A DNA stretch of 64,000 nt from Salinicola avicenniae. GTDB taxonomy: Bacteria > Pseudomonadota > Gammaproteobacteria > Pseudomonadales > Halomonadaceae. Where the stretch lies: NCBI RefSeq assembly GCF_023736115.1, contig NZ_JAKQZC010000007.1, positions 62,001 through 126,000 of the forward strand. The letters are read 5' to 3'. Below, piece after piece: positions 5,946-9,652 of the stretch. Each line of letters begins with the position of its first letter. Positions within the stretch are counted from its first letter, which is position 1. Position numbers and translations under genes: made by a program. Below the pieces are notes generated by a model. It worked only from the letters and a program-made list of their open reading frames with translations. It was not told the DNA's origin and did not search any database.

Positions 5946-6425
5946 TTATGTGTCGGTGTCGGTGTCGGTGTCGGTGTCGCCGTGGGCGGCGAGCCGCGTC
6001 AGTGAGCGCTTGAGCGGGGAGTCTTCCAGCCCTTCAGCACAGTGTCTCAGGGCGTCGGCACCGGCGGGTGACAGTTGGCGATGTTGGCGGGTGGCGATCT
6101 TGACCGGTCGAACCGGACGCACCTTGAGTGACAGCTTCATCACGGCCTCGAATCCCGGCAGCTGATGCAGCAACTGCAGCAGGCGCGGTTGCTCGTAGCG
6201 CAACCAGGTCAGCCAGGCTGCGCGATCGGTAATCAGTGTCAGTACGCCTTGATGATAGCCGCCGACATGGATATGTGCCGCCACGTCCGGTGGCACATTG
6301 GCGCGCAGGTGGTGTTGAGCGCGTTCGATCATCGCGGCCATGCGCATGACGTCTCCCAGCCCGCCGGGCTGGTCGAGGAGTCGGGAAACGGGCTGGGCTC
6401 GAAAACGCTTAGCCTTTATACTCAT
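5946..6425 (-). CDS. dciA: DciA-family (DUF721) helicase-loading protein
   Basis: DciA is the ancestral bacterial partner that loads the replicative helicase DnaB where DnaC is absent. The 159-residue product aligns by eye with the Pseudomonas protein encoded next to lpxC: an N-terminal Arg-rich start, an alpha/beta KH-like core around GGYHQGVLTLITDRAAWLTW, then a basic region (LKVRPVRPVK). The C-terminus is a Thr-Asp repeat (TDTDTDTDT backwards from the stop) encoded by a hexanucleotide tandem repeat at about 5949-5978. The gene is convergent with lpxC and divergent from the SecM-like ORF. The ribosome-binding site before the ATG is weak, so the start could be a few codons off. Confidence 0.85.
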   Translation of the reverse strand: MSIKAKRFRAQPVSRLLDQPGGLGDVMRMAAMIERAQHHLRANVPPDVAAHIHVGGYHQGVLTLITDRAAWLTWLRYEQPRLLQLLHQLPGFEAVMKLSLKVRPVRPVKIATRQHRQLSPAGADALRHCAEGLEDSPLKRSLTRLAAHGDTDTDTDTDT

Positions 6426-6487
6426 CGGCTTGCACGCGGTGGGGAGTGACCCGCCTAACCTATCACGACGCGGAGTTCGTCGACAGC

Positions 6488-6832
6488 ATGACTTCGGTCC
6501 CAGCGCAGTCCGGTCAGCGCGGCGCCATCTGGCGCCCCCGGCAGCGAGCCCATTGGTGGCTGGCCAGTGTGCTGGTCGGCTGCCTGTTGCCCGCCGGCCT
6601 GGTGCATGCGGAGGCGATGCGGCTCGCCGAGCGCCTGACGCAGGTCTACCTGATGGCGCCGGAGGCGATTCGTGCCGAGTCCCGCCGGGCCGCCAAGTCG
6701 CCCATTCATCCGCGTCCCGTAATACGCTTCCGCTCGTCGTTGCAGTTCATCCTGCCCGGCCCACCGCCATGGCGCGTGCCGAGCGCGGCGCACGATGTGC
6801 TCTCCCGGCGTGGCCCGCCACGACCTGCCTGA
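6488..6832 (+). CDS. Putative SecM-type secretion monitor / arrest peptide upstream of secA
   Basis: A 114-residue ORF directly upstream of secA. Seen: a basic N-region (RPRQRAH), a hydrophobic core WWLASVLVGCLLPAGL and a signal-peptidase-like VHA/EA site near residue 40; then a polar body, and a Pro/Arg-rich end, LSRRGPPRPA-stop. E. coli SecM likewise has a signal sequence and ends IRAGPQRLT, stalling at Gly-Pro with four residues remaining; here four residues also follow the first Gly-Pro. The 3' codons base-pair with the secA ribosome-binding site (see separate entry). The ATG at 6488 has GGAG at 6472-6475; a GTG at 6446 has its purine tract too close. Position between lpxC and secA matches secM. 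Overall sequence is not otherwise similar to SecM, so the function is inference; it could be an unrelated small secreted protein. Confidence 0.6.
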   Translation: MTSVPAQSGQRGAIWRPRQRAHWWLASVLVGCLLPAGLVHAEAMRLAERLTQVYLMAPEAIRAESRRAAKSPIHPRPVIRFRSSLQFILPGPPPWRVPSAAHDVLSRRGPPRPA

Positions 6833-6903
6833 TTCAGGATTCGTCGTTTCATTGTTACCGGCAGGGGTGCCGCCTGGCATCGTTGCCTCTGAATCTCGCA
6901 GGA
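6824..6903 (+). promoter_or_regulatory. Stem that sequesters the secA Shine-Dalgarno sequence
   Basis: CCTGC at 6824-6828 is complementary to GCAGG at 6898-6902, and GATTCAG at 6831-6837 to CTGAATC at 6889-6895. The two helices stack across a 2x2 mismatch (6829-6830 with 6896-6897). The 3' arm contains AGGA (6900-6903), the secA Shine-Dalgarno, seven bases before its ATG at 6911. The enclosed segment can form two further hairpins (6859-6872 and 6876-6887). The 5' arm includes the final Pro and Ala codons and the stop of the upstream ORF, so a ribosome halted on RRGPP would cover it and free the secA start. Confidence 0.6.
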
Positions 6904-6910
6904 AAACATC

Positions 6911-9652
6911 ATGTTGAACGTATTGGTACGCAAACTGGTCGGTTCCAAGAACGACCGTGAAGTCAAACGGATGCACAAGCAGGTCGCCGCGATCAACGCG
7001 CTCGAGGCGTCGATTTCCTCGCTGGACGACCAGGCGCTTGCCGCCAAGACCGCCGAATTCCGTCAGCGTCTCGACGCCGGCGAGAAACACGACGCGCTAC
7101 TGGCCGAAGCCTTTGCCGTGGTGCGCGAGGCGAGCCAGCGCGTGCTCGGTATGCGCCATTTCGATGTGCAGATGGTCGGCGGCATGGCCCTGCACGAGGG
7201 GCGCATCGCCGAGATGAAGACCGGTGAGGGCAAGACGCTGGTCGGCACGCTGGCGGTCTACTTCAATGCCCTGCGCGGCAAAGGCGTGCACGTGGTCACG
7301 GTCAACGACTATCTCGCCAGTCGTGATGCGAACTGGATGCGTCCGCTCTACGAATTTCTGGGCCTGTCGGTCGGCGTGATCGCCTCCGGCCAGCCCAACG
7401 AGGAGAAGCGTCAGGCCTACGCCTGCGATATCACCTACGGTACCAACAACGAATACGGCTTCGACTATCTGCGCGACAACATGGCGTTCTCGATGCAGGA
7501 CAAGGTCCAGCGTCCGCTTCATTTCGCGATTATCGATGAGGTCGACTCGATTCTGATCGACGAGGCGCGGACACCGTTGATCATCTCCGGTCCCGTCGAG
7601 GAGGATGTCGAGCTCTACCGCACCATTCACGGTCTTTCGGGCCAGCTCGTACAGTGCACCGACGAGGAGGATCCGAGCAGCGGCGACTTCCTCGTCGACG
7701 AGAAGCAAAAGCAGGTCGAGCTCACCGAGGAGGGGCACCAGAAGGTCGAGCAATTGATGCGCGACGCCGGTCTTCTGAAGACGGATGACTCGCTCTACGC
7801 GGCGCAGAATCTGGGGCTGCTGCAGCATATTCACTCTGCCCTGCGAGCCCGCTGTCTCTATCAGCGCGATGTCGACTATATCGTCTCGAACAACCAGGTC
7901 GTGATCGTCGATGAGCACACCGGCCGCACGATGCCGGGACGGCGCTGGTCGGAAGGTCTGCACCAGGCCGTCGAGGCGAAGGAGAACGTACCGATCCAGC
8001 GCGAAAGCCAGACGCTGGCCTCGACCACGTTCCAGAACTACTTCCGCCTTTACGACAAGCTGGCCGGCATGACCGGGACGGCCGACACCGAAGCGTTCGA
8101 GTTCAACCATATCTACGGTCTCGACGTCCTGATCATCCCGACCAACCGGCCGTTGGCGCGTCAGGACCTGAACGATCTGGTCTATATGAGCGCCGAAGAG
8201 AAGTTCGAGGCGATCATCGAGGACGTCAAGACGCAGCGCGAGGCCGAACGCCCGGTGCTGGTGGGGACGGCATCGATCGAAACGTCCGAATACCTTGCCA
8301 AGCTGATGCGGGACCAGAAGATCCCTCACAATGTTCTCAACGCCAAGCAGCACGACAGCGAGGCGGAGATCATCGCGCAGGCCGGTCGGCCGGGGGCGGT
8401 CACGATCGCCACCAACATGGCCGGACGTGGCACCGACATCGTGCTCGGCGGTAACTGGGAAGCCGAGGTGGCCAAGCTCGAATCGCCGAGCGACGCACAG
8501 ATCGCCGAGCTCAAGGCCGAATGGCAGCAGCGCCACGACGCGGTGCTGGAAGCTGGCGGTCTGCACGTGATCGGCTCCGAGCGTCACGAGTCGCGGCGTA
8601 TCGACAACCAGCTGCGTGGCCGTTCGGGACGCCAGGGCGATCCAGGGTCGACCCGTTTCTTCCTGTCACTGGAAGACAATCTGATGCGCCTGTTCGGGTC
8701 CGATCGCGTGCAGCGTCTCATGGGGGCGCTGGGCCTCGAGCGCGGCGAGGCGATCGAGCACAAGATGGTTTCCAATGCCGTCGAGCGGGCACAGAAGAAG
8801 GTCGAAGGTCGCAACTTCGACATCCGCAAGCAGCTGCTCGAGTACGATGATGTCGCCAACGATCAGCGCCGGGTCATCTACGATCAGCGCGACGAAATCC
8901 TCGCGGCCGATGATATCTCCGATAACGTGGCCAGCATCCGCGACGAGGTGCTAGTGCAGACTATCGCCGAGTACGTGCCGCCGCAGAGCCTGCCGGAGCA
9001 GTGGGAGCTGGCCGGTCTCCAGGATCAGCTCAAGCAGGCGTTCAACCTCGATTTGCCGCTGGAGCAGTGGGCCGAGGAAGATCCGCATTTCAACGAGGAA
9101 CTGCTGCGCCAGCGCTTGCTCGATCAGCATCGCGGCCAATATGCAGCCAAGGTCGAGGCGATCGGCGAAGAGATGATGCGCCGCTTCGAGAAGCAGGTGA
9201 TGCTGCAGGTGCTCGACACGCGCTGGAAGGAGCATCTGCAGTCGATGGATCACCTGCGTCGCGGTATTCACCTGCGCGGCTACGCCCAGAAGAATCCCAA
9301 GCAGGAGTACAAGCGCGAGGCCTTCGAGCTGTTCCAGTCGCTGCTCTACAACATCAAGCATGACGTCACGCGCATCCTCAGCCATGTTCAGGTCCGCCGT
9401 CAGGAAGAGGTCGAAGATCTCGAACGTCAGCGGCGTGAGGCGCTGGAGCGCGAGAAGGCGGCCAGCCAGTCGGTGCACGAAGAAGCCATCGCCGCCGCTC
9501 AGGAGACCGCCGAAGGCGCGGAGCCCGCGTCGGCCGAAGGTGACGAGAACGCGCAGCCGGTGCGTCGCGAGGGGCCCAAGGTGGGGCGTAACGATCCTTG
9601 CCCGTGCGGGTCCGGCAAGAAATACAAGCAGTGTCACGGCAAGCTGAACTGA
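6911..9652 (+). CDS. secA: Preprotein translocase ATPase SecA
   Basis: Motor ATPase that drives unfolded preproteins through SecYEG. The 913-residue protein (E. coli 901) shows the Walker A motif TGEGKTLVG, the DEAD-like [16 protein letters not shown], helicase motifs around [17 protein letters not shown] and [10 protein letters not shown], a charged linker from about residue 830, and a complete C-terminal zinc motif [14 protein letters not shown] that binds SecB. AGGA seven bases before the ATG is the ribosome-binding site and is predicted to be masked in an RNA stem. argJ follows 45 bases downstream. Confidence 0.99.

What the first reader, a model, noticed from the sequence alone, without database searches (positions are those of the whole stretch)
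6488..6832. Candidate SecM-type translational arrest peptide upstream of secA
The ORF sits between lpxC and secA, where E. coli has secM, and has a signal-sequence-like N-terminus. It ends LSRRGPPRPA-stop. E. coli SecM ends GIRAGPQRLT and stalls at Gly165-Pro166; both have Arg two residues before Gly, then Pro, then four residues. RGPP also resembles the RAPP-type arrest motifs of other Sec-related arrest peptides. The body of the protein does not look like SecM, and the spacing of the upstream Trp and Phe differs, so this may be an independently evolved or highly diverged monitor. This is the best candidate in the window for an undescribed system.
Basis: partly seen in the sequence, partly recalled or inferred. 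Interest (0 to 1): 0.85.

Follow-up and report, generated by a model that had tools for sequence, protein, structure and literature searches.

The report
RGPP translation-arrest leader peptide of secA
Just before the gene for the export motor SecA, salt-loving bacteria of the Halomonas family carry a small secreted-type protein with Arg-Gly-Pro-Pro near its end that likely jams its own ribosome when export is slow and so would switch SecA on; it is a new member of a published kind of switch, with a nearly constant distance between export signal and motif and with RNA pairing that is predicted to hide the secA start.

Summary
The ORF is real (6488-6832, 114 aa, ATG, ends SRRGPPRPA-stop) and not a chance motif. 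A homologue was found in 235 of 250 sampled genomes of its family (one hit judged spurious). R-[GA]-P-P near the C-terminus is kept in 97 of 97 aligned loci (95 distinct) and in 30 of 30 further genomes, although the linker before it has drifted to near-random identity (14% against 11% expected). Its claim of an undescribed system is not: Fujiwara et al. 2024 (PMC10987492) describe RAPP/RGPP upstream ORFs, name a secA-associated Pseudomonadales group, and show that an R109GPP representative stalls E. coli and B. subtilis ribosomes. No SecM homology was found, and the predicted stall is at Pro110/Pro111, not Gly-Pro. Added here: an M23-peptidase gene occupies this slot in relatives; the distance from an invariant signal-peptide Cys to the stall residue is 77-84 residues; RNA just after the arrest codons co-varies with the secA ribosome-binding site (0 of 20,000 partner shuffles). 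Arrest itself was not tested.

The parts
6488..6832 (+). arrest-peptide ORF, 114 aa, ATG to TGA
   Evidence: homologues
6554..6592 (+). conserved signal-peptide core WWLASVLVGCLLP, with the invariant Cys32 codon at 6581-6583
   Evidence: Cys, Leu at -3, Leu at +1 and Pro at +3 each 97 of 97 loci
6638..6688 (+). second, weaker conserved block QVYLMAPEAIRAESRR (within residues 51-67); by distance it would lie near the tunnel exit when stalled (inferred)
6794..6820 (+). arrest motif D-V-L-S-R-R-G-P-P (residues 103-111)
6815..6820 (+). predicted stall: Pro110 codon (6815-6817) in the P site, Pro111 codon (6818-6820) in the A site
   Evidence: register from the invariant R108 and R-[GA]-P-P and published toeprints of the RQH family (PMC10987492); not tested here
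6824..6836 (+). 5' arm CCTGCCTGATTCA, which begins 9 nt after the first base of the P-site codon
   Evidence: duplex with the 3' arm, -14.6 kcal/mol; co-variation
6890..6902 (+). 3' arm TGAATCTCGCAGG, overlapping the secA Shine-Dalgarno AGGA (6900-6903)
   Evidence: SD assigned from sequence
6911..9652 (+). secA, the regulated gene (regulation inferred)
   Evidence: Pfam SecA domains
5946..6425 (-). dciA, divergent neighbour upstream
   Evidence: PF05258

Best explanation
The ORF encodes an exported-type leader peptide, conserved across most Halomonadaceae genomes sampled, that likely stalls its own ribosome at the Pro110/Pro111 codons of its invariant R-[GA]-P-P motif and would thereby expose the secA ribosome-binding site whenever Sec export is too slow to pull the chain free. 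Shown by sequence: a secretion-type N-terminus, a near-constant-length but unconserved tether, an R-[GA]-P-P motif kept in every locus examined, and an RNA segment just 3' of the motif codons that co-varies with the secA RBS. [quoted passage not shown] the stalled ribosome would cover most of the 5' arm (6824-6836), so that this arm could not pair with the SD arm (6890-6902); SecA/SecYEG pulling on the exported chain would release the stall, the structure would re-form, and SecA output would fall.
For: Conservation: R-[GA]-P-P in 97 of 97 loci (94 RGPP, 3 RAPP; two pairs are the same genome seen twice, so 95 distinct) and RGPP in 30 of 30 further genomes of genus g10 (29 by script; L185 by eye), beside a linker at 14% mean identity against 11% expected from composition. 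RGPP is replaced only by RAPP; [quoted passage not shown] Distribution: 235 of 250 family genomes match (G452 judged spurious, as its secA is preceded by an M23-type gene). Precedent: an R109GPP member of uA_RQH_Pseudomonadales arrests both ribosomes with fAP > 0.9; RQH toeprints have the third motif residue in the P site; a related RGPP upstream ORF induces its downstream gene through an SD-masking stem-loop. RNA: in 45 sequence-diverse loci, own-partner pairing between the 30 nt after the P-site codon and the 30 nt before the secA ATG is -14.81 against -12.55 kcal/mol for swapped partners, 0 of 20,000 permutations; four control windows elsewhere in the ORF and intergenic region do not differ, nor do other 3' windows, apart from a weaker signal (156 of 5,000) for the overlapping window -45..-15. 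RNAalifold pairs CCUGC after the motif with a GCAGG in 17 Salinicola-type loci; in 12 of them this is the secA SD, in the other five an upstream copy, of which four pair at the SD itself in the duplex scan. Predicted RBS accessibility rises from 0.41 to 0.50 when the stalled footprint is removed, against 0.46 to 0.47 in shuffles; 59 of 78 loci exceed their shuffle mean.
Against: No stall, toeprint or regulation was measured. The motif alone is not enough: of 23 RAPP-like sequences taken from E. coli and B. subtilis proteins, most did not arrest translation efficiently (PMC10987492), so the upstream residues matter and were not tested here. The accessibility measure barely moves for E. coli secM-secA itself (0.46 to 0.48), so it is a weak test, although the minimum-energy fold there shows a comparable duplex. 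With the strictest grouping (13 loci) the post-motif window alone gives 467 of 20,000 permutations, and own partners are rarely the single best partner (3 of 45). In the 22 Halomonas-type loci RNAalifold pairs the SD with codons upstream of the P site (GUCC of the D-V-L codons) rather than after it; that arm would lie only partly under a stalled ribosome. In 10 Billgrantia-type loci the consensus fold does not show the post-motif/SD helix. SecM-like release by Sec pulling is inferred. The species behind uA_RQH_Pseudomonadales was not found in the main text for the names that I searched, so identity of that group with this family is inferred.
Confidence: 0.87

Rival explanations
1. The ORF only couples secA translation to its own by passing ribosomes that open the RBS structure; there is no regulated arrest.
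For: The paired segment overlaps the ORF end, so any ribosome finishing the ORF would open it; in a published relative the authors assume that a ribosome passing without arrest still opens the stem-loop transiently.
Against: Coupling would not need R-[GA]-P-P in 97 of 97 loci, a signal peptide, or a near-constant signal-to-motif distance. RGPP is reported as the most avoided tetrapeptide in 10 major bacterial groups (PMC12992588), so keeping it calls for a use.
Confidence: 0.07
2. The ORF is a diverged SecM (a true orthologue) whose body has changed beyond recognition.
For: Same genomic slot between lpxC and secA, long basic n-region, signal peptide, C-terminal arrest-like motif.
Against: No SecM match among 19 members; PF06558 found in 0 of 38 relatives while the control rings in E. 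coli; comparison of the family profile with one E. coli SecM sequence gives probability 0.1; among 16 loci of other families with readable secA upstream DNA none has an RGPP/RAPP upstream ORF and 12 have an M23-type gene there.
Confidence: 0.03
3. The ORF encodes a small secreted protein with a function of its own in the periplasm, and RGPP serves that function.
For: The N-terminal blocks are well conserved, including an invariant Cys.
Against: The likely mature part is mostly an unconserved linker (14% identity); the most conserved residues are the signal core and the last motif; in every locus with a readable secA start the ORF lies just upstream of secA.
Confidence: 0.03

Closest known systems
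RQH family of Sec-related arrest peptides, group uA_RQH_Pseudomonadales (Fujiwara et al. 2024, PMC10987492)
   Same: Small unannotated ORF directly upstream of secA, N-terminal secretion signal, spacer over 30 residues, C-terminal RGPP, order Pseudomonadales as GTDB uses it (Halomonadaceae belong there: PMC7498684, passages). The published representative is R109GPP; 10 of 97 loci here have that Arg at residue 109, counting from the last ATG before the signal core.
   Different: The sections that I read give no species, alignment or RNA pairing for this group, and spacers only for all secA-linked RQH members together; supplements were not readable. The near-constant tether, invariant Cys, M23 slot and SD co-variation were found here.
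SecM of E. coli
   Same: Position upstream of secA, signal peptide, C-terminal stall, and an RNA arm just 3' of the stall codons that folds onto the region before secA (5' arm at about +4..+17 from the P-site codon in the E. coli fold, +9..+21 here).
   Different: No sequence similarity found; RGPP with Pro110/Pro111 instead of the F..W..GIRAGP pattern and Gly165/Pro166; a dciA gene lies between lpxC and the ORF here.
ApdA / ApdP (RAPP arrest peptides upstream of secDF)
   Same: R-A/G-P-P chemistry; published structures show Pro-tRNA held in the A site without bond formation (PMC10951233, passages).
   Different: Different downstream gene (secDF) and lineages; overall sequence similarity was not tested here.

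Membership tests
RQH family, group uA_RQH_Pseudomonadales | small ORF of unknown function directly upstream of secA | tested here: met
   best family hits among 19 members are single weak ones (Pfam E 0.016 in one member, NCBIfam E 0.046 in one member); nearly all source names among the 120 listed proteins of 238 are 'hypothetical' or 'uncharacterized'
RQH family, group uA_RQH_Pseudomonadales | N-terminal secretion signal or TM segment | tested here: met
   conserved hydrophobic core with basic n-region; signal-peptidase-I type site in 92 of 97 loci by a simple rule. No dedicated signal predictor was available.
RQH family, group uA_RQH_Pseudomonadales | C-terminal RAPP-like motif conserved among homologues | tested here: met
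   97 of 97 loci R-[GA]-P-P; 30 of 30 more RGPP
RQH family, group uA_RQH_Pseudomonadales | spacer over 30 residues between signal and arrest site | tested here: met
   Cys to P-site residue 77-84; about 69 residues from the likely cleavage site in the window
RQH family, group uA_RQH_Pseudomonadales | ribosome stalling in vitro with the third motif residue in the P site | not testable with these tools
   published for a group member only
RQH family, group uA_RQH_Pseudomonadales | found in the order Pseudomonadales as GTDB defines it | tested here: met
   named relatives are Salinicola, Halomonas, Chromohalobacter and allies; Halomonadaceae in Pseudomonadales
SecM (PF06558) | match to the SecM family profile | tested here: not met
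   (control positive in E. coli)
SecM (PF06558) | FxxxxWIxxxxGIRAGP arrest pattern | tested here: not met
   sequence; pattern as quoted in PMC10987492
SecM (PF06558) | ORF directly upstream of secA with signal peptide | tested here: met
lipoprotein (Lgt/LspA substrate) | PROSITE-type lipobox (pattern recalled) | tested here: inconclusive
   Cys 97 of 97 with Leu at -3 and G/S/T at -1, but the full pattern is met in only 27 of 97 and a hydrophobic stretch follows the Cys

The most novel reading that the evidence does not exclude
The Halomonadaceae peptide is a secretion monitor built as a molecular ruler: an invariant signal-peptide cysteine, a tether held at about 80 residues while its sequence is free to drift, and the RGPP stall. 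Release would depend on the exact geometry of an N-terminus captured at the membrane, with the cysteine itself taking part (by lipid attachment or a thiol contact), so the switch would read more than plain export.
Probability: 0.15. Interest if true: 0.7.

Novelty: new member of a known kind. Interest (0 to 1): 0.42.

Why it matters
It gives the RGPP class a deep natural experiment: one bacterial family in which mainly the signal core, a weaker second block and the arrest motif are held, with co-variation between arrest-proximal RNA and the secA start. It also shows a likely secA control element lying where relatives keep a peptidase gene, and a tether of near-constant length, unlike the wide spacer range reported for most Sec-related arrest peptides. 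Members occur in Salinicola, Halomonas and allied halophiles, some used in biotechnology (recalled), so the element could matter for tuning secretion.

Tried and rejected
Rejected: SecM homology; a chance long ORF in GC-rich DNA, and overlapping ORFs in other frames as the real gene; a known RNA family in 6300-7000 (none at E <= 1); a terminator-like or sigma-70-like site in 6300-7000 (none found, 0.2 and 0.1 expected by chance, so the scan is uninformative and no promoter was identified); a solved-structure relative (none). Lipoprotein reading of the invariant Cys: not excluded but not favoured. Structure prediction was not run, because a mostly unconserved exported leader would give an uninformative model.

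Rows left out or double: L091, L118, L120 and L024 gave no readable secA start and are absent from the RNA tests (94 loci; 78); L024 is also absent from the 97, but has RGPP. Two pairs among the 97 are the same genome (L123/L129, L022/L118). The script missed L185, which was read by eye and measured later. Of 21 other-family loci, 4 gave no readable secA start and L155 has only 93 nt upstream of it, leaving 16. G469 had no secA hit. Motif and position were checked only in the loci named, not in all 235 matches.

Full report
What is there. The ORF 6488-6832 (+) encodes 114 residues starting at ATG and ending SRRGPPRPA-TGA. Upstream are lpxC and, on the other strand, dciA; downstream, 78 nt after the stop, is secA. 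The window's protein has no Pfam match at E <= 1. Among 19 relatives the best hits are weak ones in one or two members (Pfam E 0.016, NCBIfam E 0.046). Of 238 homologous proteins found, 120 were listed, and nearly all names given there are hypothetical or uncharacterized protein.

Is it a gene, and how widespread? A single-sequence search of 58 genomes (own genome included) gave matches in 44 at E <= 1; the best 30 loci were fetched and all 30 keep RRGPP. With a 19-row profile (A1), 235 of 250 family genomes match at E <= 0.01. In an order-wide sample, 19 of 390 genomes match: 18 of the family, and one weak hit in a 406-residue open frame of another family. In named genomes, 178 relatives were found and the best 80 kept, among them Salinicola, Chromohalobacter, Halomonas, Billgrantia, Modicisalibacter, Onishia, Litchfieldella and Aidingimonas. 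The closest relatives of the window protein are Salinicola. The reading frame is open in 94 of 94 loci over the ORF body; the other frames are open in 7 to 49 of 94.

What is conserved. In 97 loci (95 distinct) the stall-proximal residues are R (97 of 97), G or A (94 and 3), P, P (97 of 97 each), preceded by D (90), V (82) and L/F/I (91); position -3 is R in 90 and C, P or Q in the rest. Thirty further genomes of genus g10 all have RGPP, often with Q or P at -3. The three RAPP members are Modicisalibacter tunisiensis, a MAG (Halomonadaceae bacterium T82-2) and G022. In the signal core, Cys, Leu(-3), Leu(+1) and Pro(+3) are invariant in 97 of 97. Between residue Cys+37 and the motif the sequence is nearly free: mean pairwise ungapped identity 14% among 37 representatives, against 11% expected from composition. 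Yet the Cys-to-P-site distance is 77-84 residues (sd 2.0 in 36 representatives), while the n-region, counted from the last Met before the core (sd 6.6), and the tail after RGPP (sd 3.9) vary widely. The further genomes are also within 77-84. The published trend for secA and secDF peptides is a wide spacer range; the short class of SecM has a median of 71 (PMC10987492). The window value, about 69 from the likely cleavage site, is close to that. The near-constant distance is direct; reading it as a ruler is inference, and shared ancestry within one family could contribute.

RNA. In the window, CCTGCCTGATTCA (6824-6836), starting 9 nt downstream of the first base of the P-site codon, pairs with TGAATCTCGCAGG (6890-6902), which overlaps the secA SD; -14.6 kcal/mol. 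To test for co-evolution I swapped partners between loci. In 45 loci below 70% intergenic identity, own partners pair at -14.81 and swapped at -12.55 kcal/mol (z -4.7, 0 of 20,000 permutations). Three ORF windows further upstream and the intergenic window +33..+60 show nothing (2298, 4288, 13856 and 9880 of 20,000). The motif-codon window -30..0 is weak (625 of 20,000) and the combined window -30..+33 strong (0 of 20,000). With 13 loci below 60% identity the post-motif window gives 467 and the combined window 0 of 20,000; a first run with 7 groups gave p 0.0014 and 0.0003. Moving the 3' window off the RBS removes the signal, apart from a weaker one for the overlapping window -45..-15 (156 of 5,000). 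RNAalifold on MAFFT alignments finds CCUGC/GCAGG in 17 Salinicola-type loci (in 12 the GCAGG is the SD; in five an upstream copy), GUCC of the D-V-L codons with the SD GGAC plus two local hairpins with compensatory changes in 22 Halomonas-type loci, and no post-motif/SD helix in 10 Billgrantia-type loci, although the single-sequence duplex scan pairs these regions in several of those loci. Val at -6 is GTC in 34 of 48 non-redundant loci with Val against 164 of 466 Val codons elsewhere in the ORFs, as expected if those codons also pair with the SD. The thermodynamic test of exposure is supportive but weak: 0.41 to 0.50 against 0.46 to 0.47 in shuffles, 59 of 78 above the shuffle mean, and the known E. 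coli case scores only 0.46 to 0.48.

What stands in this slot elsewhere. Of 16 family genomes without a credible homologue (15 without a hit, and G452), 15 gave a readable secA locus and 14 of these have an M23-type peptidase ORF directly upstream of secA (recognised by sequence, Pfam PF01551 confirmed on two of them and on one from another family). Of 21 loci of other families of the order, 16 had readable DNA upstream of secA: 12 have the M23-type ORF and none has an ORF of 60 codons or more with RGPP or RAPP near its end. The simplest reading, which is inference, is that the M23 gene left this slot and the arrest leader arose within Halomonadaceae.

Comparison with what is known. Fujiwara et al. 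2024 (PMC10987492; abstract, sections 6, 7, 9, 11-14 and 25, and passages) define the RQH family by these features, name uA_RQH_Pseudomonadales, and show that its R109GPP representative arrests E. coli and B. subtilis ribosomes; toeprints put the third motif residue in the P site. The same paper reports that most of 23 RAPP-like sequences from ordinary E. coli and B. subtilis proteins do not arrest efficiently, so motif alone does not prove arrest. Fujiwara et al. 2025 (PMC12992588; abstract, sections 8, 12, 13 and passages) report RAPP and RGPP as versatile arrest cores and RGPP as the most avoided tetrapeptide in 10 major groups. [quoted passage not shown] Halomonadaceae fall in Pseudomonadales in the GTDB sense (PMC7498684, PMC12903922; passages). 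In my sample of the order the RGPP leader occurs only in this family, so the published group is most likely this one; I could not open the supplement to check. Searches for Halomonas with arrest peptide and secA (no paper), and for RGPP with arrest peptide and Pseudomonadales (the two Fujiwara papers), returned no other paper on it.

Verdict. A real and very probably functional secA arrest leader, of a kind already described. The additions here are its family-wide extent, the register, the RNA co-variation, the near-constant tether, the invariant Cys and the M23 slot. Arrest, secA induction and export-dependent release remain untested for this protein.

Noticed in passing
window 6581-6583 (Cys32): A cysteine in the middle of the signal-peptide core is invariant in 97 of 97 loci, coded by TGC in 61 and TGT in 33 of 94, so the constraint is on the protein. 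Its role is unexplained; a full lipobox pattern (recalled) is met in only 27 of 97.
   Followed up: partly
window 6818-6820 (A-site Pro codon): The A-site proline is rarely CCG (9 of 58 non-redundant loci) although CCG is the commonest Pro codon elsewhere in the ORFs (249 of 599) and at the P-site proline (26 of 58). It could reflect tRNA choice at the stall or RNA pairing.
   Followed up: partly
window 6638-6688 (residues 51-67): A second conserved block, QICLxAPxxIRAxSRR in the consensus, some 43-59 residues before the stall residue in the window, where the chain would leave the ribosome tunnel.
   Followed up: no
linker between residue Cys+37 and the motif, representatives: The unconserved tether is rich in Arg, Ala and Pro overall; an Arg-rich chain in the tunnel might itself slow translation.
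   Followed up: no
window about 5949-5980: The 3' end of dciA carries a hexanucleotide run (gtgtcg repeats) that codes for a DTDTDTDT tail, a possible length-variable site.
   Followed up: no
L203 (G517): One member keeps RGPP but has 44 further residues after it, so the motif need not be at the very C-terminus.
   Followed up: no
L148 (G418): A family genome with neither the arrest leader nor an M23-type gene seen directly upstream of secA.
   Followed up: no
intergenic regions of Halomonas-type loci (alignment A3, columns 73-101): Two local hairpins between the leader stop and the secA SD, both with compensatory changes.
   Followed up: no
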